From positions 1 through 49,534 of the forward strand of contig DYLP01000018.1 in NCBI GenBank assembly GCA_020722005.1: a DNA stretch of 49,534 bases, given 5' to 3'. The position numbers and the translations under genes are program-made. The stretch comes from Melioribacter roseus (GTDB taxonomy: Bacteria; Bacteroidota; Ignavibacteria; Ignavibacteriales; Melioribacteraceae). The number at the start of each line of letters is the position of its first letter. The first letter of the stretch is position 1. Positions 1,081 to 17,380 of the stretch are shown piece after piece. The notes beneath the pieces are model-generated. The model was not told where the DNA came from, did not search any database, and saw only the letters and a program-made list of their open reading frames with translations.

Positions 1081-1082
1081 TC

Positions 1083-1270: not shown

Positions 1271-4200
1271 ATGAAGATCATTTCTAAAATTATTTTTACC
1301 ATCCTTTTCTTATTAATCTCAATAAATATAACTCATGCTCAAGGGAAGGGTCGAATTACTGGGACTGTAATCGACTCGACTACAAACGAGCCTTTAGTAG
1401 GGGCAAATGTTCTCTTGGTAGGGACAAGTTTGGGGGCGGCAACAGATTTAGAAGGTAAATATGTAATTGCACAAATCGAACCCGGCACATATAAAATTTC
1501 AGTACGTTACATTGGATATGTGTCAAAGGAATTTACTGTTGAAGTGCAATCAAACAGAACAGTACAGCTCGATGTAGCTTTGGCTACGCAGGCAATCGAA
1601 GGGCAGGAAATTATAATTACAGCTCAAGCACAGGGACAAAAAGCTGCAATCAACCAGCAATTAACTTCTAATACTATTAAGAATGTTGTTTCAGCTGAAA
1701 AAATTCACGAATTACCAGACGCTAACGCAGCTACAGCTCTAAGCAGACTGCCAGGTCTATCGTTGATGAACGGCGATCAGGTAGTTATTCGAGGCATTCA
1801 GGCTAAGCAGAATTTGATACTCATTAACGGTATTCAACTTCCATCGAGCGACGTCTATACACGCGCCACGAATCTCGGATTTATTTCTGCAAATATGCTT
1901 TCCGGTATCGAAGTAGTTAAAGTAGTAACGCCCGATATGGACGCAAATGCCATTGGTGGCGTTGTCAATTTAAGACTACGCGAAGCTCCTTCCGGTTTTC
2001 ATTTCGATATGCTTTCTCAGGGAAGCTTAAATCACCAGGATAGGACTTATGACAATTACAGATTCTGGGCAAGTGTAAGTAACAGGTATTTCGACGATAA
2101 ACTCGGTGTATTTATTCAGGGTAACGCAGACAGATTTGACGACGGTTTAGACCAAATTTCAGCTTCGTATGAAAGATATGAATTTTTACCGTATGGTGAA
2201 TCTCCCTATCGTCTTACTAATTTTACATATTCAGACCAGCAAAATATAACTTCTACGTACGGTGGCAGTATACTTATCGATTATAAATTGCCCAACGGTA
2301 GCATATTGCTCCAGAATACAATTTCAAAAGGGGTAAACGATAATGCAACGCACAACACGCAGCTGAGTTTTGGAGACAACAGGGTAATCTATTCATTGAA
2401 CCGTGATAAATACAAAAGGACATTGCTGGCAAATGCATTGCAAGTGGAATACAATTTCGGAGATATAAAAGGAGAGCTAACTTTATCTCACTCTTATAGC
2501 GATCGCAATACCGACATCAGATATGGAGACCCGGGAGATAATACAAATTTTGCAAATGCTGCCGGAGCTCCATTCGGTTACGACGAAAATGGTAATAAAA
2601 TTTCATACTCTAATTTAAGAAATACTATTACTCCTGCTGAAATATTAAACATTAAGATTGACCCTGCTGACTATCAGGGAGCCGATATATCAGATTGGGC
2701 TGTAATTCGTGAAGTAGCTTTCAAGCAACATATTTACAATTCTCAACTCGATTTTACAATCCCGGTTTCATTTACTTCTGATTTCTCCTCAACTTTTAAA
2801 GTTGGTAGTAAGTTTGTAAGAACCACACGTTCAAATGATTTGAATCGATGGTATAAACGAACTGGAGACGAAGATTTCTATGCTAATGTAAGAGATTTCA
2901 TCCCGGGCAAAACATTAAGTAATCAAAATCAACTTCTCTTTACAGATGTCCAGAATAAAGATTACTCGAGAGGGGAGTACTTCTTGAACGGTGACCATCC
3001 ATATAATTATGCATTTAAGATCGATATGCTTGATGACTTTTATACAAGAGCACGTTCAGGATGGGGACAAGCCGTTCATAAAGATGGGACTGTTTCTGAT
3101 GACTTCAGTGGCGCTGAGATTTTCTCGGCAGGATATTTAATGGGTACATTCAATTTTGGAACGAAACTATCAATGATATTGGGCGGTAGATACGAGTATT
3201 ATAACATGAAATATAATGCTACTAATTTTTATGTAACGCATCCCGTTGACGGTAATGGAAGAGTACTTGATACCCTGCATACGGTTGATAGAAACGATAA
3301 CAACTTTTTCCCCAACGCTCAAATTCGTTACAAATTTACGAATTGGGCTGATCTAAGATTGGCTTATTCAAAAACAATTTCCCGACCCGATTTTTATGCA
3401 ATACTTCCCAATGTCTATTTCTCACCAGGACTTACAAGTCGTGCCGGCAATCCGTATTTAAAACCTGCAGTAGCCACCAATTACGACCTCTATTTGTCAT
3501 TCTATAACAACGAAATTGGTTTGTTTACTGTCGGAGGATTTTATAAAGAAATTGAAAATGTATTTTTCCAGACAAATATCTATTATCAAAATCTATCTTA
3601 TTATGGAGTTAGTTTCCCGGACTCTTTATTCTGGGTATCTCAGGGAATTACTCCTCCTGCACGGTCGGATAGGGTTAATACATACATTAACAATCCTAAC
3701 CCTGCTAAGATAAAAGGTCTGGAGTTCGACTGGCAAACAAACTTCTGGTATTTGCCAGGACCATTAAGTTCGCTCGTTTTGAATATCAACTATACCAGAG
3801 TTTGGTCTGAAATGGATTATCAACAATTAATTAATGAAGTAATCCGAGAAGAATATATCGACCCAATTACGCACAGAAAAAAATTCAGAGAAACTTATGT
3901 GACTACAGATACAATCAGAACAGCTCGATTGATTAATCAGGGCGACGATATTTTGAATATTGCTGTGGGTTTTGACTACAAAGGATTTTCAGCACGTCTT
4001 TCTTTCAATTTGCAGGGTAACGTAATTACCTCTGTCGGTGAGAGACCTGAAGATGACACATTTACGGGTAATATTTACAAATGGGATTTTACAATTAAAC
4101 AGCAGCTACCTATTGAAGGCTTGAGTATATCTTTGAGTGGCATCAATATTTTCCATAATCCAGTAAAAAATTATAGAAAGTTCCGAAGGACAGTGGACGG

Positions 4201-4276
4201 TCCCATTTTTGATAACGAAGCATCAACGCTTTATTCACCAAGGGTATTCGAACTTAACTTAAGGTACACACTCTAA
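1271..4276 (+). CDS. TonB-dependent outer-membrane receptor
   Basis: Predicted energised importer of a large substrate across the outer membrane. The 1001-residue protein has a signal peptide ending near AHAQ (residue 23), a carboxypeptidase-regulatory-like beta domain (about 27-115, starting RITGTVIDSTTNEPLVGANV), a plug domain (about 130-235, with LPDANAATALSRLPGLS and TPDMDANAIGGVVNL) and a C-terminal beta-barrel. The plug wording matches the TonB-Xanthomonas-Caulobacter receptor family, members of which often take up oligosaccharides. GGGGAG lies 8 bases before the ATG. It precedes a secreted beta-helix protein by 84 bp, so the two may be co-transcribed. No SusD-type partner is present. 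The substrate is unknown; carbohydrate is inferred from the neighbourhood. Confidence 0.9.
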   Translation: MKIISKIIFTILFLLISINITHAQGKGRITGTVIDSTTNEPLVGANVLLVGTSLGAATDLEGKYVIAQIEPGTYKISVRYIGYVSKEFTVEVQSNRTVQLDVALATQAIEGQEIIITAQAQGQKAAINQQLTSNTIKNVVSAEKIHELPDANAATALSRLPGLSLMNGDQVVIRGIQAKQNLILINGIQLPSSDVYTRATNLGFISANMLSGIEVVKVVTPDMDANAIGGVVNLRLREAPSGFHFDMLSQGSLNHQDRTYDNYRFWASVSNRYFDDKLGVFIQGNADRFDDGLDQISASYERYEFLPYGESPYRLTNFTYSDQQNITSTYGGSILIDYKLPNGSILLQNTISKGVNDNATHNTQLSFGDNRVIYSLNRDKYKRTLLANALQVEYNFGDIKGELTLSHSYSDRNTDIRYGDPGDNTNFANAAGAPFGYDENGNKISYSNLRNTITPAEILNIKIDPADYQGADISDWAVIREVAFKQHIYNSQLDFTIPVSFTSDFSSTFKVGSKFVRTTRSNDLNRWYKRTGDEDFYANVRDFIPGKTLSNQNQLLFTDVQNKDYSRGEYFLNGDHPYNYAFKIDMLDDFYTRARSGWGQAVHKDGTVSDDFSGAEIFSAGYLMGTFNFGTKLSMILGGRYEYYNMKYNATNFYVTHPVDGNGRVLDTLHTVDRNDNNFFPNAQIRYKFTNWADLRLAYSKTISRPDFYAILPNVYFSPGLTSRAGNPYLKPAVATNYDLYLSFYNNEIGLFTVGGFYKEIENVFFQTNIYYQNLSYYGVSFPDSLFWVSQGITPPARSDRVNTYINNPNPAKIKGLEFDWQTNFWYLPGPLSSLVLNINYTRVWSEMDYQQLINEVIREEYIDPITHRKKFRETYVTTDTIRTARLINQGDDILNIAVGFDYKGFSARLSFNLQGNVITSVGERPEDDTFTGNIYKWDFTIKQQLPIEGLSISLSGINIFHNPVKNYRKFRRTVDGPIFDNEASTLYSPRVFELNLRYTL

Positions 4277-4360: not shown

Positions 4361-6121
4361 ATGAAGAAGTTATTTTCCTATTTCTTAACTCTCTTGCTGC
4401 TCTCGTTCTCTTCGTCTATTGCTCAGGGGCTTATGGATTATGTCGAAGAGGTAAGAGGAGATACTCTTGTAATTAAAGACTACTACGATCTGGGGCAGGC
4501 AAATTCGTTTAGCAATGCAATTACTGCAGATAGCGTCAATGTACCTGCAGGAAGAGTCTACATGTTGAAAACAGCCGGCTGGTATCCAATGTCTGCTGGA
4601 CTTACTACCCCTGCTGACAGACCAACGGTTATTGTCGGTGAAGATGATGACATCCTGGTTAAAAGGCAGGCAGCTCCGCCGATTATATCTGGATTTACCG
4701 ACGAGGGGGGGTCGAGCATAGGCGGTATAACCTGGAGTAATGATTTAACAGTAAAAAATACCAGCATAATTTGCGGTGCTCCCGACGGTACATATGGCTG
4801 GGCATTCTTTGGTTCCGGTGCTGCGGACTGCAAAGTTGTTTTTCAAAATAATATGATGGAACACAACTGGTGGGTATTTGTTCAGTCAAATGGTAATTCA
4901 GGTACGAGGCTGTATTTCAAGGATAACTATTTTGTCAATATGAGTGGGCGCGCCTGCCGTCGTAACGGAGGTGTATACGATAACGTAGATAACAACACAG
5001 ATACTATCTACGTTGAAAACAATACTCACGTTATGGCTCAAGGCTACATTTACAAATTCAGAAATTATCCCATTAAATTTATCTACGTAAATCATAATAC
5101 TTTTGTAAACTGCTCGAATGTTATTTTTGAAACACAGGGAGTTCAAAGTAACGCTATCGTTGCTAATAACATTTTCGTTAATAGTAACGTACAACCTTTC
5201 AGACCCAATATGACAGAAGACCTTTCGGAACAAGCTTATGACGGTCAGCCACAAGGTATTATCGACGTTGCTGTTCTGCCAGAAAGTATGGAACAAGTCG
5301 ACAGAAAATGGCTGGTTGAAGCTAATTTGGTTTATTGGGATTCAAGACTGACCGATCTGGCAGCCGAAGCAAACAGTATGGCTGTTAACGGATTTACTAC
5401 ATGGTTGAATCAGGCAATGAAAATGAACAGCCGTACGAAAGCACTTTTTGATGATAATGCCAATTATCCCTATTTAACCGAAGGCAAATGGTATGAAAAA
5501 TTGCCAACCTTTGCCAATACTGCCGACCTCTTAACTGACCAGGTAGATGTACTTAAAGAATTCAGTCTTGCAACTATCGATACTACGAGCACAGCAGTAA
5601 TGCCGTTCTGGAGAGTAACCAGTGTTGGAACCGAGAACTTCATTTATTCCGATTGGCCAATTCCTATCGACCTTTCTTATAGTGATGCAGATCTAAAAGT
5701 TGGAGGTACCGATGGATTACCTATCGGCGATTTGAACTGGTTCCCTGATGCAAAAGCCACATTCATTGCAAACCATTCCCAATATTTTTCAGACCTGGTT
5801 ACTGCACTGGCAGAAGGACATACTGTAACTTCGGTTAAAGAGCTGGGTGGTATGCCAACTCAATTCGAATTATCTCAAAACTATCCAAACCCATTTAACC
5901 CGACAACTGTCATTACCTTTACTTTACCGCAGCCGGGTAATGTTACTCTTAAAGTATATAATGCTCTGGGACAGGAAGTAGCAACTCTGGTCGAAGGTTA
6001 CAAAACTGCACAGAAATACGAAGTTACATTTGATGCATCAAATCTTGCCAGCGGTTTGTATATCTACACTTTACAGAGCGATAACTTTAAACTGTCCAAG
6101 AAAATGATGCTGATCAAATAA
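4361..6121 (+). CDS. Secreted beta-helix protein with T9SS sorting domain
   Basis: A 586-residue extracellular protein. A signal peptide (residues about 1-21, ending SSSIAQ) is followed by a region rich in N-x-F/V repeats (about 125-290), the pattern of a right-handed parallel beta-helix as in pectate-lyase-like proteins. Residues 503-586 are a type A C-terminal sorting domain (NYPNPFNPTT, YNALGQEVATL, LASGLYIYTL, ending KKMMLIK), which directs export by type IX secretion and attachment at the cell surface. I see no certain catalytic residues, so polysaccharide lyase, other glycan-active enzyme or binding protein are all possible. GGAGG lies 8 bases before the ATG. It follows the TonB receptor and ends at a strong terminator. 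Confidence 0.85.
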   Translation: MKKLFSYFLTLLLLSFSSSIAQGLMDYVEEVRGDTLVIKDYYDLGQANSFSNAITADSVNVPAGRVYMLKTAGWYPMSAGLTTPADRPTVIVGEDDDILVKRQAAPPIISGFTDEGGSSIGGITWSNDLTVKNTSIICGAPDGTYGWAFFGSGAADCKVVFQNNMMEHNWWVFVQSNGNSGTRLYFKDNYFVNMSGRACRRNGGVYDNVDNNTDTIYVENNTHVMAQGYIYKFRNYPIKFIYVNHNTFVNCSNVIFETQGVQSNAIVANNIFVNSNVQPFRPNMTEDLSEQAYDGQPQGIIDVAVLPESMEQVDRKWLVEANLVYWDSRLTDLAAEANSMAVNGFTTWLNQAMKMNSRTKALFDDNANYPYLTEGKWYEKLPTFANTADLLTDQVDVLKEFSLATIDTTSTAVMPFWRVTSVGTENFIYSDWPIPIDLSYSDADLKVGGTDGLPIGDLNWFPDAKATFIANHSQYFSDLVTALAEGHTVTSVKELGGMPTQFELSQNYPNPFNPTTVITFTLPQPGNVTLKVYNALGQEVATLVEGYKTAQKYEVTFDASNLASGLYIYTLQSDNFKLSKKMMLIK

Positions 6122-6140
6122 CATTAGCTACGTTTATACT

Positions 6141-6178
6141 AAACCCCGATAATCATCTTATCGGGGTTTTATTTTTAT
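6141..6178 (+). terminator. Rho-independent terminator
   Basis: A perfect 12-bp stem (AAACCCCGATAA, 6141-6152, with TTATCGGGGTTT, 6158-6169) encloses a 5-base loop and runs into a T-rich tail. It closes the receptor/beta-helix transcription unit. Confidence 0.92.
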
Positions 6179-6251
6179 TAAATACAGATTATATAATAAT
6201 TGGTCGGCGTTTTGTAAGTCGTTATATCTATTCCTGAACGGGAGAAAATTT

Positions 6252-7988
6252 ATGCAATATTTGCGATACTTTTTTCTTTTAGTAGTGGGGGAAATTTTTC
6301 TTAGTGGCAGCATATCAGCAATTACAATTACCTCGAACGATTCAATTGTTGTAAAATATGCCGATAAATATACTTTTAAAATTGCTGAACTTAATAAGTA
6401 TATAGTCGATTGGCTATATCACAAAAAATATAAAACTAGAGAAGAAGTATATCGTAATGCTCTGCATGATATGCTGATTAATCAATTAAAGAGAATGGAC
6501 TTTTTTGATAGAGGTTTGGATAACGATACTAATTTAATAAAAAGCATAAGCCGCGTTGTAAATGAAGAATTGGTAGCGGAATACTTCAAATCCCAGTACC
6601 TAAATAAATATACTACCGAAGAAAATGTGAAAAATGTTTACAGTACGATGGGTAGAAAAATCGTTTATCGACAAATTGAATTAGTAAAGAGCGAGAACAT
6701 TACCCCGCAACAACTCGATTCGTTAGAGAAAAAAGCCTTACAGATAAAATTGGAAATCGAAAAAGGTAAAGATTTTAACGGACTAATTAAAAAATATTCC
6801 TCGAATAACATCGCAAGTATGCAGCAAGTCGATTGGAAGCAGGCACTCCTGGATCCAGTAGCAAATGTCGTATTTAAATTAAATGAAGGAGATGTGCGTA
6901 TAATAAATACACCTAACTCTCTTAAAATAGTCGAAATCACGGAAGTCCAATCTGTAAATATCCCACCTTTTGAAGTTGCTAAAAGTGAAATTTCGACGTA
7001 CCTGAAAAATATTTCTTATACACCTGCATACGAGGAATTTGAAAATGACAAAATAAAATTAATCGATGAAAATAAATTGACCTGGGATACTACTGCTTTA
7101 GAACAAATTGCATTCTGGTCATATACACCAGATTTTTATGAAGATAAATATTCGCAAGTCTTATCAGAGGAAATTAAAAAGGGAAATAACAAAATCATCT
7201 TAAAGTATGATGACCTTTCGGTTGACTACAAAAAGTTTATTTATCTGCTGGACAATATTCTGATTCTAAAAAGTAATGGGAATATTACGGCCGGGACATT
7301 GAAGAATTTTCTACTTGAAGCTTTAAGAACGGAAATGATTGTAAAGGAAGCCGAGCGTCTGAATCTTAAAAAAAATATTTTCAATGCTTTTACAGACGAT
7401 ATTGTATTAAAGAATCAAATAGTCTACCTCTACAATCAGGCGGTCATTGAATCGAAAATACCGTCGGTTACTGAACAGGCTATTTATGATTTTTATATGA
7501 AGCATAAGGACGATTTATATTATCAGCTTGAAAAAAGAAATATTTTTGTTGTGGTATTTACTTCAAAAGAAGAAGCTGAAGAGGCTTATAAAAAAATTAA
7601 TGACGGAATCCCGTTTGAAAAAGTGAAAGGCAGTTATCTGGTAAAGACGTATACTAAAGAACGCAACGGTGAGATTAAGTCATTACGAAAAGAAGAAAAA
7701 CCGTTGTTTGGAAAAATAGCATTCACTTTAAAAGAATCGGAAGTCACTAAACCAATTGAATTTACAGAAGAGAATCAAAAAAAGTATGCTCTTATCAAGT
7801 GCTATAAAATCAGACCGGAAAAACAATTAACTTTCGAAGAGGCTAAAGATTCAGTCATCGAAGACTACAAAAATTATCACAGAAATGAGATTAAGCAGGA
7901 AGTTGAAAAATATTTAATGAAAAAATACAATCCTATGGTTAATGAAGAGGTAATGAAAAAATTAATCAACGACAATAACTCGATTTAA
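6252..7988 (+). CDS. Periplasmic parvulin-type peptidyl-prolyl isomerase
   Basis: A 578-residue exported folding factor of the SurA/PpiD kind. It has a signal peptide (about 1-24), an N-terminal helical SurA-like region, and two regions that look like parvulin domains: about 133-235 (RKIVYRQIELVK ... GDVRIINTPNSLKIVEITEV) and about 425-525 (KRNIFVVVFTSKEEAEEAYKK ... FAL/FTLKESEVTKPIEF), with a charged helical tail. The first domain is degenerate and may only bind client. In this phylum such proteins help outer-membrane and secreted proteins fold. GGGAG precedes the ATG by 9 bases. It leads the run of same-strand genes to 14910, with an 82-bp gap to the next. It is not a recognisable one-to-one SurA orthologue. 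Confidence 0.75.
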   Translation: MQYLRYFFLLVVGEIFLSGSISAITITSNDSIVVKYADKYTFKIAELNKYIVDWLYHKKYKTREEVYRNALHDMLINQLKRMDFFDRGLDNDTNLIKSISRVVNEELVAEYFKSQYLNKYTTEENVKNVYSTMGRKIVYRQIELVKSENITPQQLDSLEKKALQIKLEIEKGKDFNGLIKKYSSNNIASMQQVDWKQALLDPVANVVFKLNEGDVRIINTPNSLKIVEITEVQSVNIPPFEVAKSEISTYLKNISYTPAYEEFENDKIKLIDENKLTWDTTALEQIAFWSYTPDFYEDKYSQVLSEEIKKGNNKIILKYDDLSVDYKKFIYLLDNILILKSNGNITAGTLKNFLLEALRTEMIVKEAERLNLKKNIFNAFTDDIVLKNQIVYLYNQAVIESKIPSVTEQAIYDFYMKHKDDLYYQLEKRNIFVVVFTSKEEAEEAYKKINDGIPFEKVKGSYLVKTYTKERNGEIKSLRKEEKPLFGKIAFTLKESEVTKPIEFTEENQKKYALIKCYKIRPEKQLTFEEAKDSVIEDYKNYHRNEIKQEVEKYLMKKYNPMVNEEVMKKLINDNNSI

Positions 7989-8070
7989 TCCTTTTTAGAC
8001 TGAATAAATTTGTTGTATCTACTTAGTGAATTATTTTATCTTAAAAACATTAGATCCGGAATAATAATCT

Positions 8071-10014
8071 GTGATTAATTCTGAAGATAAAAAAAATATT
8101 AAGAAGAAAATATTGGCTGATCGTAAAAACTTCACTCCGGAACAACTTTCTAAAAAGTATAATATTCCCGTTAAAGAAATCAAAGAAATATTAAAGATTT
8201 CAGCTCGCAAGTACCCTAAATGGTTTTACCTGATCTTTATAGCTATTCCGGTAGCATTTTTAGTTTTACTGGAAATATCTCTAAAAGCATTTAATTACGG
8301 ATATAATCTGGAGCAATGGGTAGATGCAGGCAACGGCAAGCTTATAATTAATACGGAAATAGGCAGAAGATATTTCCCGAGCGGCAATTTTGTTCCGAAT
8401 ACTATCGAAGATATGTTTGACATCCATAAAAAGCCAGATGCGTTTAGAGTGTTTGTGCTGGGTGAGAGCAGTGCTCAGGGTTATCCTTTTAATCCGATGG
8501 GAGCTTTTTCACGATATATTCGAAAAAGATTGGAGCTTGTCTATCCTCAAGCTAAAATTGAAATTGTAAATATCAGTATGACAGCAGTCAATTCATATAC
8601 GATTCTGGATTTACTACCGGGAGTATTGGAACAAAAGCCTGATTTAATATTGATCTACGCTGGGCATAATGAATACTATGGTGCTCTGGGTGTCGGTTCT
8701 ATTGAATCGTTTGGTACATCTCGAAATCTGGTTAAGTTGATGCTATTTTTAAATAAATTCAAAACCACGCAATTGTTGAGAGATGCAGTCAATTCACTAC
8801 TATCATTTCTTTCATCTGAAAAGACAAAGCCGCGTGGCACTCTTATGTCGGAAATTGCAGAAGATAAATTAATCCCGATTAATTCAGATAAATATTACAA
8901 AGGTGTGGAGCAATTCAGAGAAAATTTAGATGAGATTTTACAATTAGCTAAAGAAAAAGGAACGCCTGTAATTATTGGAAAGCTTGTAAGTAATTTGAAA
9001 GACCAGAAACCTTTCGCGTCAATCAAATATCGTGGGAATAAAGCTGCCATTGAAATTTATGAACTTGCAAAAGAGGAATTGTTAAAAAACAATTTTTCGA
9101 AAGCTGAATCGTTATTTGTTCTGGCTAAAGACCTGGACGCTCTCAGATTTCGGGCTCCTCAGATATTGAATAAAGTAATAGTACAGCTCGGCAATAAATA
9201 TAAAGTTCCTGTTGTTCCGCTGGATTCAATATTTAACAGTGTGAGTCCTTTTAAGATTGCCGGAGACAATCTCTTTGTCGATCACCTGCACCCGAATTTG
9301 CAAGGGTATCAATTAATTGGAAAATCATTTTATGATTACATGTACAAGTACGGTTATTTGAATTCACTCGGCAAAGAACAATTTCCATATGAGCAGCAGG
9401 ACAGCATTACACTGGCAAATTTTGTGTTCACACGATTGGACTCTGTTTTGGGTACTTATTATGTCAAACTGTTAAAGTCGGATTGGCCTTTTACCAAAAA
9501 AAGGAGTGAGAAATTTAATCAACAAGATTTTATGGGAATGTTGAATCCAAAAGATTTTATCGATTCAATTGCAGTAGCAAGAATTGAAAACAAGATATCA
9601 TGGGTCGATGCGCACTTAATAGCAGCTACTTATCATCTTAGAAGAGATGAAATTAAAGACTATCTTAAATATATGAATGTAATTATTTATCAATATCCCA
9701 TATTAAAAGATCTCGACGGCGCGCTGAGATTTTTTTACGCTCAAAATAAAATTAATCTGAACGATTACATACCGCGTAGAAACGGGTTGATGGCTCTCTA
9801 CATCGGCAACTACGGCAATGCAATTAGATATTTAAAACTGGCTGCTGAATCGGAACCAGACAACTCAGTTATTTTATATAATCTGGCATTAGCTTTTTAT
9901 AAAAAAAATAATTTCGACTCAGCCACCGTGTATCTTAATAAATGCTTAATGCTAAACCCGCACAACAAAGAAGCAATGGAGTTAAAAAAATTAATTAAAA
10001 AGAATAAAAAATAG
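8071..10014 (+). CDS. Membrane-anchored SGNH hydrolase with TPR tail
   Basis: A 647-residue protein starting at GTG. Residues about 20-43 (FTPEQLSKKYNIPVKEIKEI) resemble a helix-turn-helix and would face the cytoplasm; a transmembrane helix follows at about 52-70. The extracytoplasmic part is an SGNH/GDSL-like hydrolase: block I GESSAQG with Ser133, block III GHNE at 198-201, and block V DHLH with Asp404 and His407. Such enzymes act as esterases or acyltransferases on glycans or lipids. Residues about 575-640 form at least two TPR units. It lies 23 bp before the spermidine-synthase-like membrane protein, suggesting one transcript. The substrate is unknown; the fold call is firm, the role is not. 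Confidence 0.75.
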   Translation: MINSEDKKNIKKKILADRKNFTPEQLSKKYNIPVKEIKEILKISARKYPKWFYLIFIAIPVAFLVLLEISLKAFNYGYNLEQWVDAGNGKLIINTEIGRRYFPSGNFVPNTIEDMFDIHKKPDAFRVFVLGESSAQGYPFNPMGAFSRYIRKRLELVYPQAKIEIVNISMTAVNSYTILDLLPGVLEQKPDLILIYAGHNEYYGALGVGSIESFGTSRNLVKLMLFLNKFKTTQLLRDAVNSLLSFLSSEKTKPRGTLMSEIAEDKLIPINSDKYYKGVEQFRENLDEILQLAKEKGTPVIIGKLVSNLKDQKPFASIKYRGNKAAIEIYELAKEELLKNNFSKAESLFVLAKDLDALRFRAPQILNKVIVQLGNKYKVPVVPLDSIFNSVSPFKIAGDNLFVDHLHPNLQGYQLIGKSFYDYMYKYGYLNSLGKEQFPYEQQDSITLANFVFTRLDSVLGTYYVKLLKSDWPFTKKRSEKFNQQDFMGMLNPKDFIDSIAVARIENKISWVDAHLIAATYHLRRDEIKDYLKYMNVIIYQYPILKDLDGALRFFYAQNKINLNDYIPRRNGLMALYIGNYGNAIRYLKLAAESEPDNSVILYNLALAFYKKNNFDSATVYLNKCLMLNPHNKEAMELKKLIKKNKK

Positions 10015-10037
10015 TCATATCTTATTTTCCGAGTACA

Positions 10038-12365
10038 ATGAACGGTAAAAAAATTTATTTCATAATATTAACACTTTCTCTCTCTATCATTAGCTTCGAA
10101 ATTGTATCGACTCGCATATCGTCTGTAATTTTCGTCAGCAACTATGCATTCTTAATTCTATCACTTGCCATGCTGGGTATTGGACTGGGAAGTATATATG
10201 CACATTATAAGATTAAGCAAAACGAAGCAGAAAAAATTATATTCTTTTTGAAGAAGTTGATTTTTGCATTAAGTCTCTGTCTTATTCTTTTTATCTTATT
10301 GGTAATAATCTTCAAAATTACTAGTCCGTTTGTCTACTTCATACTGCAAACCATACCATTTTTCGTAGCGGGTATAGTTTATTCACAAATTTATAAAGTA
10401 TTTTCATTAGAAGGTTTTCGATTATATGCTTATGATCTGGTGGGAGCAGCGCTTGGTGCGGTAATATCAATTATTCTTCTAAATTATCTCGGAGCCCAAA
10501 ATAGCGTATTGTTCATTTCTTTAGTATTACTCTTGATGACGATAAATATGTTGCCAGATAAATTATCTTCTAAGGTTAAACTGTCACTCAACATCTTTTT
10601 ATTATTGCTTGCGGCACTACTTCTTATTAACCGAGACACTGAACTGATCGGAGAAATACCAATAGGATATTATCCCGAAAAAGATTTTTATTTTGTTTAT
10701 CCAGACGCAAAAAATATTTCCGAAATAGAAGAAAGCAGATGGAGCATTAACGGTCGTTCGGACCTTGTTAGGTATACTGATCAGGATATTGTTAAACAAT
10801 TATTTGTGGATGGTTCCGCAGGTTCGCAAATGTACCGATTTAATGGCGACGTTAGAAATCCCGGTAGTATACTTGGCAGACTCTTGATACAACATTCTAC
10901 TTCAATTCCTTTTTTATTTCTCAAAGAGAATGAGAAAAATAATATGCTTGTAATAGGACCTGGAGGTGGAAAGGAAATTTTGATTGGTTTAATCGAGGGA
11001 GTGAAACAAATATATGGGGTGGAAGTTAATTCAGATTTTGTCCGGATTGTCAAAGATTATAAAGACTTCAACGGTGGTATTTATACCGATTTTAATAATG
11101 TCACTATTCAAGTTGATGAAGGGCGTAACTATGTTAAACGCACTGATAAAAATTTCGACATAATCGTAATGGCTCTCCCTTCGACTGAACAATTACAAAA
11201 TATTGACAACCTGGCATCAAACGAAAATTATTTGCTTACAGTAGAAGCTATAAAAGATTATTTGAACAAGCTTTCTTTACACGGTAAGTTGATTTTTACG
11301 TTACATAACAGATGGGAATTAATTCGACTATTGGTTACTACACTCTACGCATTTGAAGAAATGGGTATTGAAAATCAGGCAGCTCTGAATCACTTAATTA
11401 TTATTGGACAGGATTATGCACCTACTCTTGTAATAAAAAAAATAGCTTTTTTACAAGAAGAAATAAATGATATCAAAAATACTGCGCAAAAAATTCCTCG
11501 TAGTTTACCGCAAGTAACTTATCTTCCATACAATTGGGATAAGTTAGAAAAGTCGCCGGAAAATCGATTCTTGCTATCAATCAAAGAGAATACTTATTCA
11601 CTCGGAGATTTAATAAAAAAGGATAAGTACGATATATCTCCTGTTCGAGACGACAATCCGTTCTTTTACAAAATAAAACGAGGTGCGCCGGATGATTTTG
11701 AGAAACTTTTTTTGGGTATGTTGATTATTGCTTCCCTGTTTATAGCCATTCCCATAGTTAAAATAATCCGAAATAGAAAAGAAAAAATAAATCGAACAGT
11801 ACTTTCTTTCACGCTTTTGCTTTTTGCTTGCATTGGTGCAGGTTTTATGATTATTGAAGTTGCTTTGTTTCAGAAATTAATTCTTTATCTGGGTGTCCCT
11901 GCGATATCGTTATCTGTTTTGCTCACGTCTATGTTGATTGGAATGGGGCTTGGAAGTTTTTACAGTCATAAGATAATCAAAGAAAAAATTTATTATCGTT
12001 TAATTATAATCTCTTTTTTTATTATCGCCTATGGAATATTACTATTCGCAACCTATCCATCAATAATGAGTGGAGTAGTTGAATTAAGTCTTTTTTATCG
12101 GGCTTTAATAATTTTTATCTTATTACTACCTTTAGCTTTTTTACTCGGATTCCCGTTTCCCACAGGCATCCAGTTGCTTAAACAAAATGGTCTTTCAAAT
12201 TACATCCCGTGGTTGTATGGTATAAATGGTATTATGTCGGTTACAGGTTCAGTTTTAGCAGTAATCTTATCAATGACGTTTGGATTTACAGCGTCTTTTT
12301 TGGTAGGTCTATTTTTCTATTTAGTTATAACTATTGGTGCATGGAAAGCAACTTGCAATAAATAA
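10038..12365 (+). CDS. Multipass membrane protein with spermidine-synthase-like domain
   Basis: A 775-residue protein with an N-terminal block of about seven transmembrane helices (1-195), a central Rossmann domain of the spermidine synthase/methyltransferase fold (about 225-430) and a C-terminal block of about six helices (550-770). The nucleotide-binding loop GPGGG is at 307-311. Where true spermidine synthases have the catalytic Asp-Ser/Thr-x-Asp stretch after strand 4, this protein reads DIIVMALPST (374-383), so the usual proton-accepting Asp is absent. Polyamine synthesis is therefore doubtful; S-adenosyl ligand binding remains possible. It sits between the SGNH hydrolase and GH9 genes, 16 bp before the latter start. 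Function unknown. Confidence 0.7.
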   Translation: MNGKKIYFIILTLSLSIISFEIVSTRISSVIFVSNYAFLILSLAMLGIGLGSIYAHYKIKQNEAEKIIFFLKKLIFALSLCLILFILLVIIFKITSPFVYFILQTIPFFVAGIVYSQIYKVFSLEGFRLYAYDLVGAALGAVISIILLNYLGAQNSVLFISLVLLLMTINMLPDKLSSKVKLSLNIFLLLLAALLLINRDTELIGEIPIGYYPEKDFYFVYPDAKNISEIEESRWSINGRSDLVRYTDQDIVKQLFVDGSAGSQMYRFNGDVRNPGSILGRLLIQHSTSIPFLFLKENEKNNMLVIGPGGGKEILIGLIEGVKQIYGVEVNSDFVRIVKDYKDFNGGIYTDFNNVTIQVDEGRNYVKRTDKNFDIIVMALPSTEQLQNIDNLASNENYLLTVEAIKDYLNKLSLHGKLIFTLHNRWELIRLLVTTLYAFEEMGIENQAALNHLIIIGQDYAPTLVIKKIAFLQEEINDIKNTAQKIPRSLPQVTYLPYNWDKLEKSPENRFLLSIKENTYSLGDLIKKDKYDISPVRDDNPFFYKIKRGAPDDFEKLFLGMLIIASLFIAIPIVKIIRNRKEKINRTVLSFTLLLFACIGAGFMIIEVALFQKLILYLGVPAISLSVLLTSMLIGMGLGSFYSHKIIKEKIYYRLIIISFFIIAYGILLFATYPSIMSGVVELSLFYRALIIFILLLPLAFLLGFPFPTGIQLLKQNGLSNYIPWLYGINGIMSVTGSVLAVILSMTFGFTASFLVGLFFYLVITIGAWKATCNK

Positions 12366-12381
12366 TAATTGGAGAGGTGAA

Positions 12382-14910
12382 ATGAAAAAACTATTTCTTC
12401 TTATAGTGATTTTATTTTTAAGCCACTGTTCAATATCGTCACAAACATTAAAAATCAATGAAAAAGAATATTTTGAAACACGCGGTGTGAATTTATTGGT
12501 TTTCAGCAATCAATATACGGGCTACTTTTTCGACGAAAAAACTGCAGGCATCGAACTGATTCATCATGGAGTAAGAACTGCTACAGGAGGTGCCGTACGT
12601 CTTCAGCCCACGCCAGAGCAGTGGGATCAAATACCTATGGTGATTGAGAGAAAGGTTGACAGGGAGAATAATTCCATAGAGGTATTGCTACGTTATAACG
12701 AATTCGATTTTAATTCCAGGGTGAAAGTTGAGGCATTTGAAGACGGTGTGATTATAAAAGTAATTCTTGATGAACCGTTACCCGATAAATTAGTCGGGCA
12801 TGCAGGTTTTAATATTGAATTTTTGCCGTCGGCTTATTTTGAAAAAACTTATTTGATTGATGGAGAACCCGGTATATTTCCATTATATCCGACAGGTCCT
12901 GTGGAAGCCAGGCCTATTGAAGAAAAGATACCTCAGTTTGCCGGTCATTCAACTTTTGACGATAAAGGTCGCGGAGAATTTATAAAGCCGCTTCCCATTG
13001 CAGAAGGTAAGGTCTTAACACTGGCTCCCGAAGACCCTGAACGTCTTGTAACAATTAAATCGATGACGGGACAACTGATGTTGTATGATGGAAGAAACCT
13101 TGCTCAAAATGGCTGGTACGTTGTAAGGTCATTACTACCTGCCAATAAAAGTGGAGTGGTTCTAAAATGGTTCTTAAAAGCAAATTCAATTAAAGATTGG
13201 ATACGAGAGCCTGTAATAACATATTCTCAAGTTGGATATCATCCAGATCAAAATAAAATTGCTGTTATTGAACTGGATAATAACGATACACCACTTGAAA
13301 CGGCTGCTCTATATAAAATTGACGAAAGTGGGAATACAAAACTTGTCTTAGAACGAAAAGTTGAACAATGGGGAGAGTTCCTCAGATACAAATACGTGAC
13401 TTTTAATTTTAGTGACATAAAAGAGAGCGGTTTATACTGCATCAAATATGGAGAGTTAACAACCAAACCTTTCCCGATAAGCAAAGATGTATATAAATCG
13501 GCTTGGCATGCTACGCTCGATGTATGGTTTCCTGTTCAGATGGACCATATGTTTGTCAACGAAGCTTACAGAGTGTGGCATGGCTTGCCCAGCCGGGACG
13601 ATGCACGTCAGGCTCCTGTAAATCATATCCATTTTGACGGTTACAGAATGGGACCGAGTACGGATACCAAATACAAACCGGGCGAACATATTCCGGGACT
13701 AGATGTTGGTGGCTGGTTCGATGCGGGCGACTTTGATATTCAAACGGGGCATCATTGTACAGCTATTATGAGTTTTGTCGATAGCTGGGAAAACTTTCGA
13801 ATTGACAGAGATCAAACGTATATTGATCAAAAAATTAGATATACTGATATTCATCATTCCGATGGGAAAGCCGATTTGTTGCAACAAATCGAACACGGCG
13901 CGTTGCAACTTGTCGCTCAACATAAATCTGTTGGTCATGCTTTTAGAGGGATAGTAGTACCTAATCTTCATCAATATCACCATCTCGGCGACCCATCTAC
14001 TATGACAGATAATATGATTTTTAACCCTGATATGGGTGTTAATGAAAATGATGGTAAATATAGTGGAGTTAATGACGATAGATGGGCTTTTACAGGTAAA
14101 GACCCTGCATTGAATTATTCTTCGATGGCGGCTATGGCTGCTGCATACAGGGCTTTGAAAGGATTCAACGATTCGCTTGCCAGCGAAGCTTTGTCGATGG
14201 CAGAAAATGCATGGATTAGAGAACACAATGAATCTGGCTGGGAAATACAGGATACCGGCAGGTTTGCATTGTACAGAATCAAAGGCGAAATCGATGCGGC
14301 ATTACAATTGTTTATTTCAACTGGCAATAGTAAATATAAAGAACGATTTGAAAAGCTGATATGGGATGCTCTCGATTTATCGCGTATTCTTTATATCGAA
14401 GCTGCTGTAAAAGCTATCCCATATTTCAACTCGCAGTATAAAGAAAAGCTCGTTCCATACGTAGAAAAATATAAAATAGAGTGTGACGAATTCTTAAAGG
14501 AAAACCCGTATGGAGTTTTGATCGGAAAGCGTCCGTGGGCGGGCAACCATGAATTAATAAGCTGGGCAATTACAAATTATCATGTCAATAGGGCATTCCC
14601 CGAGATAATGAGTCCCGAATATACATACAGAGGATTAAGTTATATTTACGGTTTACATCCTTCATCGAACATATCTTTTGTATCGGCAGTAGGAGTTCAC
14701 TCCAAAAAAGTGGCTTATGGAGGCAATAGGGCGGATTATACTTTCATTGCCGGCGGTGTAGTTCCTGGATTATTAATGCTGAAACCGGACTTTCCCGAAA
14801 ACAAAGAGGATTGGCCATTCCTCTGGGGGGAGAATGAATATGTCGTTGACATCTGCGCCGAGTATATCTTTCTTGTAAATGCTGTAGATAATTTATTAAA
14901 CAGCAAATAG
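12382..14910 (+). CDS. Glycoside hydrolase family 9 enzyme (endoglucanase-like)
   Basis: An 842-residue exported enzyme. I take the ATG at 12382, preceded by GGAGAGGTGA and starting a signal peptide (MKKLFLLIVILFLSHC), over an upstream in-frame ATG at 12334 inside the previous gene. Domains: an uncharacterised beta-rich N-terminal region (about 25-275), the Ig-like domain typical of family 9 (about 278-375), then the alpha/alpha-barrel. The catalytic base motif DAGDFD has Asp447 and Asp450, and the acid is probably Glu819 in GENEYVVD. Family members cleave beta-1,4-glucans such as cellulose, by inversion. A Cys at residue 16 (LSHC) is a poor lipobox, so secretion to the periplasm or outside is more likely. 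No T9SS tail. Spacing suggests co-transcription with the preceding membrane protein gene. Confidence 0.85.
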   Translation: MKKLFLLIVILFLSHCSISSQTLKINEKEYFETRGVNLLVFSNQYTGYFFDEKTAGIELIHHGVRTATGGAVRLQPTPEQWDQIPMVIERKVDRENNSIEVLLRYNEFDFNSRVKVEAFEDGVIIKVILDEPLPDKLVGHAGFNIEFLPSAYFEKTYLIDGEPGIFPLYPTGPVEARPIEEKIPQFAGHSTFDDKGRGEFIKPLPIAEGKVLTLAPEDPERLVTIKSMTGQLMLYDGRNLAQNGWYVVRSLLPANKSGVVLKWFLKANSIKDWIREPVITYSQVGYHPDQNKIAVIELDNNDTPLETAALYKIDESGNTKLVLERKVEQWGEFLRYKYVTFNFSDIKESGLYCIKYGELTTKPFPISKDVYKSAWHATLDVWFPVQMDHMFVNEAYRVWHGLPSRDDARQAPVNHIHFDGYRMGPSTDTKYKPGEHIPGLDVGGWFDAGDFDIQTGHHCTAIMSFVDSWENFRIDRDQTYIDQKIRYTDIHHSDGKADLLQQIEHGALQLVAQHKSVGHAFRGIVVPNLHQYHHLGDPSTMTDNMIFNPDMGVNENDGKYSGVNDDRWAFTGKDPALNYSSMAAMAAAYRALKGFNDSLASEALSMAENAWIREHNESGWEIQDTGRFALYRIKGEIDAALQLFISTGNSKYKERFEKLIWDALDLSRILYIEAAVKAIPYFNSQYKEKLVPYVEKYKIECDEFLKENPYGVLIGKRPWAGNHELISWAITNYHVNRAFPEIMSPEYTYRGLSYIYGLHPSSNISFVSAVGVHSKKVAYGGNRADYTFIAGGVVPGLLMLKPDFPENKEDWPFLWGENEYVVDICAEYIFLVNAVDNLLNSK

Positions 14911-14916
14911 AATTTC

Positions 14917-14948
14917 CCGGGCTGCCTTTACAGTCGAAGACAGCCCGG
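14917..14948. terminator. Hairpin between convergent genes
   Basis: CCGGGCTG (14917-14924) pairs with CAGCCCGG (14941-14948), with AATT/AATT extending the stem imperfectly. It lies between the converging GH9 and alcohol dehydrogenase genes. Neither side has a good T run, so it may act as a weak bidirectional terminator or as a 3' end stabiliser. Confidence 0.55.
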
Positions 14949-14953
14949 AATTC

Positions 14954-16119
14954 TTAGTACTCGCCTTTGAAAGCAACTGAATAGATTTGATAGATGTCGT
15001 CACGTTCTAATTTTCTTATAGTGCCTAATGGCGATTGCAAAGCGGCATTGTCAGCGAGTTTATTCAATTCGTCTTTTTTAATACCAAAGTCAGTTAGTTT
15101 AACGGGAGCTCCAATAGACTTATAGAATTCAACAAGTTGTTTTATTGTTTGTCTACCTTCTTTTATGTCATGACCGAATACATTCTTTCCGAGTCGGATT
15201 AATTTTTCATTTATCAAATTTATGTTATATAACATCCAGGCAGGAAACATAACAGCCAGGCCAGCTCCATGAGCTACGTCGTAAAATGCCGAAATCGAAT
15301 GTTCAAGTGAATGCGTAGCCCAGTCGCCATAATTTCTGCCGGCGCTGATTATACCGTTTAATGCCAGGGTAGCAGACCAGGCTAAATTTGCGCGTGCATT
15401 ATAATCGTCCGGTTTATTGATTAGAGTTTTTGTACTCTTTATAATAATCCTTATGATACCTTCTGCGAGTTCATCAGGTAAATCTGTTTCTGGAGTGCCA
15501 TCGAAATACAATTCAAAGATATGTGAAAGAGCATCGATAGCACCATAAACTGTCTGTTCACGAGGTAGCGTAAATTGTACTATCGGATCGATTATAGATA
15601 CTTTCGGATACGAAGCCAATCCAGCGGTAAATGCCCATTTTTATTCTCTGCTTCATTTGTTATAACGGCGTAGCCATTCATTTCAGAGCCGGTTGCTGAA
15701 AGTGTGAGTATGGAAAATATTGGCAGGGAATTTACCAGTTGAACGTTCCCTTCAAATGCATTCCAGATATCGCCTTCGTAGAGGGCAGCTGCACCAATTG
15801 CTTTCGCAGAATCAATTACACTGCCACCACCCAATGCTAATATGGCTTCGATATTATTTCCCTTTACATAGTTTGCCGTTTCACGCACAAAACTCAATAC
15901 AGGATTCGGTTTTACCCCTCCTTTTTCAATATATCGAATATTATTTGCTTTCAATGATTCAATCACTTTTGTGTAAACTCCGTTTTTGAAAATAGAGCCT
16001 TTTCCATATAGAACAAGAACGGATTTAATATTATAATTTTTAATTTCATTCCCTATCTTTCCAATTGTTTCCCTACCAAAAACAATTTTAGTCGGATTTT
16101 GATATACAAAATTATTCAT
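14954..16119 (-). pseudogene. YqhD/BdhA-type iron alcohol dehydrogenase, frameshifted
   Basis: NAD(P)H-dependent alcohol/aldehyde oxidoreductase of the iron-containing family. The N-terminal part (from 16119, ATG with GGAGG 8 bases upstream) carries the cofactor motif ALGGGSVIDSAKAI and TLSATGSEMN. The C-terminal part (stop at 14954) carries the metal-binding histidines (DALSHIFE, SLEHSISAF, AHGAGLA). The two halves are in different frames: after ITNEAENK the expected sequence KWAFTAGLASYPK is encoded, but only if one A is added to a run of five A (T run 15638-15642 on the plus strand). As written, translation continues out of frame for about 16 residues and stops. Everything else is intact, so this is either a sequencing/assembly error or a very recent mutation. 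It is divergent from the LacI-type regulator. Confidence 0.85.
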
Positions 16120-16320: not shown

Positions 16321-16348
16321 TTTGTGGAGCGCAGAGCAGGAAGCTTAA

Positions 16349-17380
16349 ATGAAGAAAATAACTATTGTTGATGTCGCCAGAAAAGCAGGGGTATCTAAAG
16401 GAACCGTATCAGCTGTTATTAATGCTAAGAATACAGTAAAGCCAGAAACACGCGACCATATCCTGCAGATAATGAAAGAGCTTAACTACAGACCCAAAGG
16501 AATGGCGCGTAATTTGAAGAACGGTAGTCAGGATAGAGCTATTGGAATTATAATTAAAGACCTGAATTATCCTTTCTATACTGCGATTGCTTCGGGAGTT
16601 AAAGAATATGCAAATTCAAAAGGTTATTCGGTCGTAGTTACAAGTTCCGAAAATGACCATGAATCCGAAATTAGATTTTCTCATATGTTCTCGGCTAAGG
16701 ATATTAAAGGTGCAATTATTGCTCCGATTGTCGAGGGAAATTCAGAAATTGAGCATTTATTTAAATTGAAGATGATTAATTATCCTTTCGTACTTCTGGA
16801 GGATGTAAGAGGTATTCAGGCAAATGTAGTAGCCATCGATAATCAGAATGCTATTAAAAAGGCTGTCAAATATCTGATTGATTGCGGACATACAAAAATT
16901 GTCCACTTTGCAGGACCGCCTCAGTCTTCACATACGCAGGAACGTATTGAAGGATTTAAGCAGGCATTCAGCGAAAGCCCTTTGATTTTACGAGACGATA
17001 TGATTGTTTCAATCGGCTCGAAATTTGAAGAAAGCTTTGGCAAAACAATCGAATATTTCAAGAACCGCAAAAAGGAAGATTATCCCACAGCAATTGTATG
17101 CTTTAACGACCAGCAGGCATTAGGAGTAATTATGGCACTTAAAGAACTACGAATTAAAGTGCCAGACGATATTTCTATTGTCGGTAACGACGATATTTAT
17201 TATGCTCGTATCTATCCGGTTCCGCTAACTACGATACGAGCGCCTCAACACGAAATAGGAAGGAAAGCTGCTGAAATACTAATCAGAAATATTGAATCGA
17301 ACGTTTTATTGCCGCCGGAAAAAGTAGTACTCGAAACAGAGCTTATCATTAGAGAATCTACAAGAGTATTGAACGAATAA
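16349..17380 (+). CDS. LacI-family transcriptional regulator
   Basis: A 343-residue DNA-binding regulator. The N-terminal helix-turn-helix and hinge (TIVDVARKAGVSKGTVSAVI, then VKPETRDHILQIMKELNYRP) are textbook LacI family, followed by a periplasmic-binding-protein-like effector domain (about 60-340, with IGIIIKDLNYPFYTAIASGV and the PDDISIVGNDD stretch). Effectors of such proteins are usually sugars. AGGA precedes the ATG. It is divergent from the alcohol dehydrogenase, with an operator-like palindrome between them, and convergent with uvrC (3 bp between stops). It probably represses itself and perhaps the carbohydrate genes to the left; effector and regulon are inferred. Confidence 0.9.
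   Translation: MKKITIVDVARKAGVSKGTVSAVINAKNTVKPETRDHILQIMKELNYRPKGMARNLKNGSQDRAIGIIIKDLNYPFYTAIASGVKEYANSKGYSVVVTSSENDHESEIRFSHMFSAKDIKGAIIAPIVEGNSEIEHLFKLKMINYPFVLLEDVRGIQANVVAIDNQNAIKKAVKYLIDCGHTKIVHFAGPPQSSHTQERIEGFKQAFSESPLILRDDMIVSIGSKFEESFGKTIEYFKNRKKEDYPTAIVCFNDQQALGVIMALKELRIKVPDDISIVGNDDIYYARIYPVPLTTIRAPQHEIGRKAAEILIRNIESNVLLPPEKVVLETELIIRESTRVLNE

What the first reader, a model, noticed from the sequence alone, without database searches (positions are those of the whole stretch)
8071..12365. SGNH hydrolase/TPR protein paired with a spermidine-synthase-like membrane protein lacking the catalytic Asp
The two genes are 23 bp apart and the second is 16 bp from a GH9 gene. The membrane protein has transmembrane blocks on both sides of a Rossmann domain with a GPGGG loop, but the position of the polyamine-synthase Asp motif reads MALPST. 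The SGNH protein has an intact Ser-Asp-His set outside the membrane. Together they could modify an envelope or extracellular glycan or lipid by a route not described. This is the best candidate for an uncharacterised system in the window, but function is inference.
Basis: inference. Interest (0 to 1): 0.5.

Follow-up and report, generated by a model that had tools for sequence, protein, structure and literature searches.

The report
Periplasm-facing spermidine-synthase-like protein in xylan loci
A membrane protein that resembles a polyamine-making enzyme, but has lost its catalytic acids and appears to face outward from the inner membrane, belongs to a conserved gene set for using plant cell-wall sugars in several bacterial phyla; its exact job is unknown and testable, and the neighbouring esterase is only an occasional companion.

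Summary
In detail: genes 23 bp apart, GH9 16 bp on; P0002 (10038-12365) has TM blocks on both sides of a SpeE-fold domain and reads MALPST at the catalytic motif; P0001 (8071-10014) keeps its Ser-Asn-Asp-His set. The interpretation needs correcting. P0002's usual partners are the upstream PpiC foldase, T9SS surface protein and TonB receptor: PpiC lies within six genes in 25 of 32 close P0002 loci, full-length SGNH in 8. PpiC (E<=1e-20) occurs in 12 of 294 genomes, all 12 with close P0002. CE15, GH9, GH10, GH43 or GH127 genes in some loci point to hemicellulose. The missing acids are a family trait (41 of 41 homologues), not a lesion. New: loop charges (41 of 41) and a 7+7-helix model put the SpeE-like domain in the periplasm, while SAM-type nucleotide residues are kept, as in the fungal seven-TM methyltransferase NHMT. 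Best mechanism: an outward-facing SAM-type group-transfer enzyme maturing exported proteins of the locus beside PpiC (0.35); main rival: an MFS carrier with a periplasmic binding domain (0.30). P0001 is probably an optional anchored esterase. Function is inference throughout.

The parts
1271..4276 (+). TonB-dependent receptor of the core cassette
   Evidence: TIGR01782 338.2 bits over a cut-off of 310; homologue near P0002 in 23 of 32 loci, one of them cut by a contig end and one downstream with a lower score
4361..6121 (+). T9SS-sorted surface protein (called BHEL in the calls; beta-helix look judged by eye), possible substrate-binding partner of the receptor
   Evidence: Por_Secre_tail 508-583; homologue near P0002 in 24 of 32 loci
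6252..7988 (+). PpiC/SurA-like periplasmic foldase (P0003), co-occurrence partner of P0002
   Evidence: Rotamase_2 70.5 bits, two stretches; at E<=1e-20 in 12 of 294 genomes, all 12 with close P0002; near P0002 in 25 of 32 loci
8071..10014 (+). P0001: membrane-anchored periplasmic SGNH esterase-like domain plus TPR; optional accessory
   Evidence: Lipase_GDSL_2 42.6 bits, TPR; model pLDDT 83.7; SGNH part like Axe2 acetylxylan esterase 4jko, Z 14.3, 193 residues, rmsd 3.1, tied with other GDSL esterases
10038..12365 (+). P0002: 14-TM protein with a SpeE-fold domain between TM7 and TM8
10629..11705 (+). SpeE-fold domain of P0002 (residues about 198-556), predicted periplasmic; GPGGG at 307-311, MALPST at 378-383
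   Evidence: positive-inside count 41 of 41; 1uir_A Z 20.8, 268 residues, rmsd 3.5
12382..14910 (+). GH9 enzyme (P0004) with CelD_N domain
   Evidence: Glyco_hydro_9 37 bits, CelD_N 28.2 bits; GH9 homologue near P0002 in 17 of 32 loci, one of them a fragment
16349..17380 (+). LacI-type regulator (by sequence appearance, not scanned), possibly controlling the locus
   Evidence: ORF; 67% identical homologue in the P0002 locus of G013, 97% in G153

Best explanation
P0002 is the inner-membrane member of a conserved core (TonB receptor, T9SS-sorted surface protein, PpiC foldase, P0002) of loci that use plant cell-wall hemicellulose. SHOWN by computation: 14 predicted TM helices (7+7); a SpeE-fold domain between the halves; loop charges that place that domain on the periplasmic side; loss of both catalytic acids and of the decarboxylated-SAM acid in the 41 homologues aligned; retention of the GxG loop, ribose-binding acid and post-beta3 Glu-Gly-Arg; near-exclusive co-occurrence with this PpiC in the class sampled. 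INFERRED: the domain still binds a SAM-type nucleotide and transfers a group (most simply methyl) to an exported protein of the locus, for example the surface protein or receptor, as a maturation step beside the PpiC foldase, much as the fungal seven-TM enzyme NHMT methylates secreted lignocellulose enzymes. The membrane halves, which resemble an MFS carrier and keep polar residues in predicted TM helices, anchor the enzyme and might bring the donor across. P0001 is an optional membrane-anchored periplasmic esterase, recruited at least twice, probably deacylating imported oligosaccharides.
For: Topology: K/R in loops that would be cytosolic average 19.8 against 2.4 outside, in favour of N-in in 41 of 41 (TM borders set by me from the hydropathy); the model has 7+7 helices. 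Pocket: G307, G309, G310, G311, N331, E361, G362, R363, P381, E396 and T401 are in 41 of 41; residue 329 is E in 39 and D in 2. NHMT parallel: seven TM plus SpdS-like domain, no acid in GxG(D/E)G, SAM-binding Glu needed, ER location, secreted substrate (PMC10349129, passages and Discussion). Partner: PpiC (E<=1e-20) in 12 of 294 genomes, all with close P0002, even on another contig in G013; P0002 without it in 2 of 14 (Fisher p 1.3e-19, not corrected for relatedness). A pure importer role is not needed where GPH or SSF carriers lie near P0002: 8 of 32 loci (L067, L070, L073, L074, L118, L121, L122, L128). Three seven-TM proteins with intact SpeE motifs show the same charge pattern (3 of 3 examined), so an outward SpeE domain may be an old trait.
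Against: No activity, ligand or substrate was tested. SAM is not known to be available in the bacterial periplasm (general knowledge). No target protein or residue was found; mature N-termini of the surface proteins, read by eye, show nothing that points to a modification. The MFS-like fold and conserved E21 (40 of 41), R26, D133, Q612 (41 of 41) and E607 (39 of 41) in predicted TM helices fit a transporter equally well. Pocket conservation can persist for binding without catalysis. In 22 of 32 loci no other protein with six or more predicted TM segments lies within six genes, though several stretches are cut by contig ends, which leaves room for P0002 as the importer. The loop after the motif (384-393) is poorly modelled. 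In the two distant loci scanned (L077, L082; about 30% identical P0002) neighbours are ICMT-like, DUF302, FAD-oxidoreductase, P-II and M50 genes, so the domain's chemistry need not concern glycan loci.
Confidence: 0.35

Rival explanations
1. P0002 is an MFS-type (POT-like) inner-membrane importer for products of the TonB receptor; the SpeE-fold domain sits between two extra helices as a periplasmic capture or gating domain and no longer does chemistry.
For: 6ei3, a POT-family transporter, aligns over model residues 1-775 with Z 20.4, 385 residues, rmsd 4.8; 14 TM, N-in; conserved E21, R26, D133, E607, Q612 in predicted TM helices; a glycan locus needs an inner-membrane importer, and in 22 of 32 loci no other polytopic protein was seen within six genes.
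Against: Canonical GPH or SSF carriers lie near P0002 in 8 of 32 loci. The nucleotide pocket is conserved also in non-glycan contexts. No Pfam MFS family matches P0002 at E<=0.1; the halves are not detectably repeated by profile comparison (E 0.015-0.021). 6ei3 was the only MFS entry among the 50 rows shown.
Confidence: 0.3
2. P0002 is a non-catalytic assembly platform: its periplasmic domain docks the PpiC foldase (a lipoprotein by eye in many relatives) near the TonB receptor and the T9SS substrate while they fold and leave the cell.
For: Co-occurrence with PpiC and gene order receptor, surface protein, PpiC, P0002; catalytic acids lost.
Against: Does not explain why the nucleotide site is invariant, nor the MFS-like membrane part with conserved polar residues.
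Confidence: 0.15
3. One reading: P0001 and P0002 together modify an envelope or extracellular glycan or lipid.
For: Adjacency in 8 of 32 loci and two recruitments of SGNH on a quick tree; both parts predicted to face the periplasm.
Against: 24 of 32 P0002 loci show no full-length SGNH neighbour (2 of these have a contig-edge fragment), several with about 10 kb on both sides; P0001 relatives occur without close P0002; glycan-degrading context.
Confidence: 0.1
4. The topology is wrong and P0002 is a cytoplasm-facing SAM-dependent enzyme on small molecules or lipids.
For: SpeE-fold enzymes with known substrates are cytosolic (general knowledge).
Against: Positive-inside count 41 of 41, with a strongly positive loop right after TM8 (4.8 K/R on average).
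Confidence: 0.07

Closest known systems
NHMT (AN4663), fungal seven-TM N-terminal histidine methyltransferase of LPMOs (PMC10349129)
   Same: Seven TM helices followed by a SpeE-like domain; no acid in the GxG(D/E)G motif; SAM-type ribose acid kept; works in lignocellulose use on exported proteins
   Different: Eukaryotic, ER; no second seven-TM half; the paper reports its TM sequence only in filamentous fungi; target known (His1), whereas P0002's is not
NF002956 / PRK03612 seven-TM 'polyamine aminopropyltransferase' (members L163-L165 in relatives)
   Same: Pairwise profile alignment over residues 4-458 (E 1.4e-11); P0002's C-half matches their seven-TM part (E 3.8e-5), its N-half alone does not (E 0.2); same N-in charge pattern
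   Different: They keep GGGDG, YHE and D[LF]PDP; P0002 has GPGGG and ALPST and a second TM half, and scores 17.5 bits against a cut-off of 472
NF037959 fused MFS/spermidine synthase (MFS_SpdSyn)
   Same: By name a TM plus SpeE fusion
   Different: No match anywhere in the window's genome at E up to 1
POT-family MFS transporter 6ei3
   Same: Membrane part aligns, Z 20.4 over 385 residues, rmsd 4.8
   Different: 10% identity; the SpeE domain lies outside what this match explains
Polysaccharide utilisation loci of Bacteroidota (SusC/SusD type)
   Same: TonB receptor, exported surface protein, glycoside hydrolases and esterases, regulator in one locus
   Different: No SusD match among the six window genes scanned; a T9SS-sorted protein in its place; dedicated PpiC and P0002
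Axe2 / AlAXEase acetylxylan esterases (SGNH)
   Same: Among the closest solved folds to P0001's SGNH part, with other GDSL esterases (Z about 14)
   Different: P0001 is membrane-anchored and has a TPR tail; 14-17% identity; Z values tied with general GDSL esterases

Membership tests
Spermidine synthase / aminopropyltransferase | SpeE fold | tested here: met
   1uir_A Z 20.8, 268 residues, rmsd 3.5; 3o4f E 1.7e-9 by profile
Spermidine synthase / aminopropyltransferase | Curated family cut-off (PF01564, NF002956, NF037959) | tested here: not met
   14.8 of 22.9 bits; 17.5 of 472 bits; no NF037959 match in the genome at E<=1
Spermidine synthase / aminopropyltransferase | Acid in GxG(D/E)G for decarboxylated SAM | tested here: not met
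   Gly310 in 41 of 41; criterion from PMC10349129
Spermidine synthase / aminopropyltransferase | Catalytic D..D in the beta4 motif | tested here: not met
   A/S/T/V/F at 379 and S/I/V at 382 in 41 of 41; mapped on DLPDP of L163
NHMT-like outward-facing methyltransferase | Seven TM helices before a SpeE-like domain | tested here: met
NHMT-like outward-facing methyltransferase | Ribose-binding acid kept, GxG(D/E)G acid absent | tested here: met
   Position 329: 39 E and 2 D; G310 41 of 41
NHMT-like outward-facing methyltransferase | Sequence kinship of the TM part with NHMT; methyltransferase activity | not testable with these tools
   No fungal sequence collection and no bench here
Major facilitator superfamily (POT-like) | MFS fold of the TM part | tested here: inconclusive
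   6ei3 Z 20.4, rmsd 4.8, 385 residues, but the TM part was not folded and searched alone; no Pfam MFS match at E<=0.1; internal repeat not significant
SGNH/GDSL hydrolase (P0001) | Ser, Asn, Asp, His set and curated family match | tested here: met
   S133, N200, D404, H407 in 30 of 30; PF13472 42.6 over 32.9 bits
SusC/SusD-type polysaccharide utilisation locus | TonB receptor with hydrolases | tested here: met
SusC/SusD-type polysaccharide utilisation locus | SusD-family protein beside the receptor | tested here: not met
   In the window: the gene next to the receptor has Por_Secre_tail and weak hits, none of the six genes scanned is SusD. Other loci were not scanned for SusD

The most novel reading that the evidence does not exclude
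P0002 is a self-supplied outward-facing SAM enzyme: its MFS-like 7+7-helix part carries SAM (or a relative) across the inner membrane to its own periplasmic SpeE-fold domain, which methylates an exported protein of the hemicellulose locus held by a dedicated PpiC foldase. It would give bacteria a periplasmic counterpart of the fungal ER enzyme NHMT, and may hold for the wider 7TM-SpeE superfamily.
Probability: 0.17. Interest if true: 0.85.

Novelty: new variant of a known kind. Interest (0 to 1): 0.52.

Why it matters
Membrane proteins with a spermidine-synthase-like part are easily annotated as polyamine enzymes. Here the catalytic acids are missing in every homologue aligned, the domain is predicted to face the periplasm, and its partners are a foldase, a TonB receptor and a T9SS surface protein of plant-fibre loci. 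If the domain uses SAM there, SAM chemistry outside the bacterial cytoplasm becomes directly testable; if it does not, these are carriers with a recycled enzyme as periplasmic domain. Either way a gene core found, whole or in part, in genomes filed under Ignavibacteriota, Balneolota, Rhodothermota, Fidelibacterota, Calditrichota and KSB1 gets a defined, unexplained component, with Gracilimonas mengyeensis DSM 21985 as a named strain.

Tried and rejected
Pair as the functional unit: rejected as the main reading by the tally and trees.

Lesion in the catalytic motif: rejected; the change is in 41 of 41 homologues.

P0001 N-terminal segment as a DNA-binding helix-turn-helix: considered because of its look; dropped because several homologues lack it and no Pfam HTH family matched P0001 at E<=0.1.

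Acetylxylan specificity of P0001: the fold is near Axe2-type esterases but tied with general GDSL esterases. P0001 relatives elsewhere sit near a protein with CBM48/CBM20 matches (one scanned, L084) and one that looks like GH13 by eye (L088), so specificity is left open.

Internal MFS repeat by profile comparison of the two halves: not significant (E 0.015-0.021; reversed control 0.13). N-half alone against the seven-TM part of L163-L165: E 0.2; C-half: E 3.8e-5.

Defence-system link: one weak TPR-region match for P0001 only (E 0.0015). RNA families in 1-20000: none at the gathering score. Sequence search of solved structures with P0001 or A4 showed, in the rows listed, matches to the TPR-side C-terminal region only.

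Papers: no paper on this cassette or on an outward-facing bacterial SpeE/MFS fusion was seen in the listings of searches (open-licence PMC only). Read: PMC10349129 (passages, outline, Discussion), PMC3534657 (passages), PMC11107197 (passages), PMC5492636 (abstract and outline). The rest were seen as search listings only.

Weak points: gene calls in the loci are my own mechanical ORF picks, and the families were scored with HMMs built partly from the same loci, so absence calls are rough. One search started from the window, L063-L075 and L103-L139. Rows dropped before the count of 32: 11 loci that repeat others (L105, L108, L109, L111, L113, L117, L126, L127, L129, L130, L133), the split P0002 of G216 (L075), and homologues under 900 bits (L131, L132, L134-L138). 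L123 and L124 are near-copies and both are counted. A slip in notebook entry 6: it gives 23 for BHEL; the rows count to 24. In the class searches only the best candidates of each genome are scored and the match lists are cut. The genome scan found only loci holding one of two peptide patterns, so its numbers are lower bounds. Only some of the proteins near P0002 were scanned with Pfam; polytopic neighbours of L120 and L139 and some of L118 and L128 were not. Trees are 'quick' trees with SH-aLRT only; P0002's tree has three long rows. That G153 is Melioribacter roseus is a guess from size and kinship, not shown.

Full report
WHAT IS THERE. Both genes are at the stated coordinates, with gaps of 23 and 16 bp. 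P0001 (8071-10014) has a short N-terminal segment, one TM helix (50-73), an SGNH domain and a TPR tail. P0002 (10038-12365) has seven helices, a SpeE-fold domain and seven more helices. The six genes from 1271 to 14910 lie on one strand with gaps of 16-130 bp: TonB receptor, T9SS-sorted protein, PpiC foldase, P0001, P0002, GH9. The genome has one P0002 match; besides P0001 it has one partial homologue on C14 and a weak hit on C51.

THE REAL UNIT. P0002 was searched in 294 genomes drawn from the class. Fourteen have a close homologue (13 with E at or below 1e-170 plus G216, where it is split); the next best genome has E 2.5e-120. The PpiC protein P0003 is found at E<=1e-20 in 12 of the same 294 and all 12 are among these 14. 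In G013 the two are on different contigs (C38, C80), so shared presence is not just linkage. The six P0001 hits with E below 1e-200 are all next to P0002, in both orders: P0001 first in G000, G153 and G058, P0002 first in G257, G134 and G283. A scan of genome contigs with the close family brought 37 loci. Together with the class loci, and after removing repeats, 32 close P0002 loci remain, the window included. Within six genes: PpiC 25, T9SS protein 24, TonB receptor 23, GH9 17 (one a fragment), full-length SGNH 8 plus 2 contig-edge fragments, CE15 4. Of the 7 loci without PpiC, 5 hold less than 4.3 kb upstream, one is G013 (PpiC on another contig), and one (L121) has 10 kb upstream without it. 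The core is therefore receptor, surface protein, PpiC, P0002; SGNH is optional.

TREES. Seven of the 8 P0002-adjacent P0001 proteins form one clade (SH-aLRT 100) among 30 rows; the eighth (L112, a KSB1 MAG) falls elsewhere, so on this quick tree SGNH joined P0002 at least twice. On the P0002 tree the SGNH neighbour needs 5 changes, at least 3 forced by well-supported branches. A link that forms repeatedly suggests compatibility of function, not dependence.

THE PATHWAY. Proteins beside close P0002 that I scanned include glucuronoyl esterase CE15 (L066, L069, L070), two GH43 and an esterase (L064), an alpha-L-arabinofuranosidase C-terminal domain (L069), GH127 and GH95 (L071), GH3 and a xylose-isomerase-like protein (L074). 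In Gracilimonas mengyeensis DSM 21985 (L128) they include GH10, an FGGY kinase, a xylose-isomerase-like protein and a GPH sugar carrier. This is a hemicellulose, mainly xylan-type, context in the loci examined; other loci were not scanned and some may differ.

P0002 ANATOMY. The SpeE domain matches solved spermidine synthases (1uir_A Z 20.8, 268 residues, rmsd 3.5). The whole model also aligns with the POT-family carrier 6ei3 over residues 1-775 (Z 20.4, 385 residues, rmsd 4.8), so the membrane part looks MFS-like, with the SpeE domain where POT carriers have two extra helices (recalled, not computed). The TM part was not searched alone, profile comparison of the two halves is not significant, and no Pfam MFS family matches at E<=0.1. 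Counting K+R in loops over 41 homologues gives 19.8 on the side of the N-terminus against 2.4 on the other, the same way in 41 of 41. The loop after TM8 alone averages 4.8, so the domain is on the outer side judged from either end. Three seven-TM proteins of relatives with intact SpeE motifs (L163-L165) show the same pattern, 10-13 against 0.

THE POCKET. At the two Asp positions of the DLPDP motif P0002 has A379 and S382, and no homologue of 41 has an acid there. The acid of GxG(D/E)G is Gly310 in 41 of 41. Kept in 41 of 41 are G307, G309, G311, N331, E361, G362, R363, P381, E396 and T401; residue 329 is E in 39 and D in 2. In the membrane part R26, Y130, D133, Q612 and S640 are in 41 of 41, E21 in 40 and E607 in 39. 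PMC10349129 reports that the fungal enzyme NHMT has seven TM helices and a SpeE-like domain, lacks the acid of GxG(D/E)G, needs the SAM-binding Glu, resides in the ER and methylates the N-terminal His of secreted LPMOs; its Discussion raises SAM supply in the ER as a possible limit. P0002 shares the architecture, the missing acid and the kept ribose acid, by sequence and model.

MECHANISM. I prefer an outward-facing group-transfer enzyme that matures exported proteins of the locus beside PpiC (0.35), narrowly over a carrier with a periplasmic SpeE-derived domain (0.30). The nucleotide site is conserved in all 41, glycan context or not; the strictest partner is a foldase rather than a hydrolase; and recognised GPH or SSF carriers lie near P0002 in 8 of 32 loci. 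Against it, no periplasmic SAM is known, no target was found, and in 22 of 32 loci no other polytopic protein was seen within six genes. The two readings can be one: a carrier that feeds its own enzyme domain.

P0001. Its SGNH set is complete and invariant in 30 of 30, although the model is weak right at two catalytic loops. Near solved folds are acetylxylan esterase Axe2 and other GDSL esterases, all near Z 14. In 20 other loci its relatives sit beside families whose representatives match PorV (15 of 20 loci), carbamoyltransferase (10 of 20) and SxtJ (9 of 20), and in L084 a protein with CBM48/CBM20 matches, so a narrow xylan role is not established.

NOVELTY. In ten searches of open-licence PMC texts I saw nothing on this cassette or on outward-facing bacterial SpeE/MFS fusions. 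The parts are of known kinds; the combination and the predicted side of the membrane are the new points. In the two distant loci scanned (L077, L082; P0002 about 30% identical) the neighbours are ICMT-like, DUF302, FAD-oxidoreductase, P-II and M50 genes, so the family is wider than glycan loci.

Noticed in passing
window 14954-15619 (-) and 15592-16119 (-): An alcohol-dehydrogenase-like gene (by appearance) is split into two overlapping frames here; the same gene is one 388-residue frame in the same-genus genome G153 (L063:4618-5784), 86-87% identical.
   Followed up: partly
L065 about 2820-6443 (G283, contig C112): A degraded second copy with fragments of P0001 and P0002, with internal stops, lies next to a carbamoyltransferase-family and an SxtJ-family gene.
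   Followed up: no
L083-L102 (loci of P0001 relatives): P0001 relatives recur beside a family of about 1,230 residues whose scanned member has no Pfam match at E<=0.001 (15 of 20 loci), a PorV-like family (15 of 20), carbamoyltransferase (10 of 20) and SxtJ (9 of 20); CBM48/CBM20 in L084 suggests an alpha-glucan locus there.
   Followed up: partly
P0003 homologues, e.g. L103, L106, L118, L128: The PpiC partner looks like a lipoprotein (lipobox judged by eye) in many relatives, but not in the window, where an ordinary signal peptide is seen.
   Followed up: no
L163-L165: Seven-TM spermidine-synthase-like proteins with intact GGGDG, YHE and D[LF]PDP motifs also have the charge pattern of an outward-facing SpeE domain, which raises the same question for a curated polyamine-enzyme family.
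   Followed up: partly
P0001 residues 1-49: A helix-turn-helix-like cytosolic segment precedes the TM helix in many but not all P0001 homologues.
   Followed up: no
L110: A close P0002 locus is filed under a Methanosarcina MAG; its nearest relatives in the tree are bacterial, so the contig is probably misbinned.
   Followed up: no
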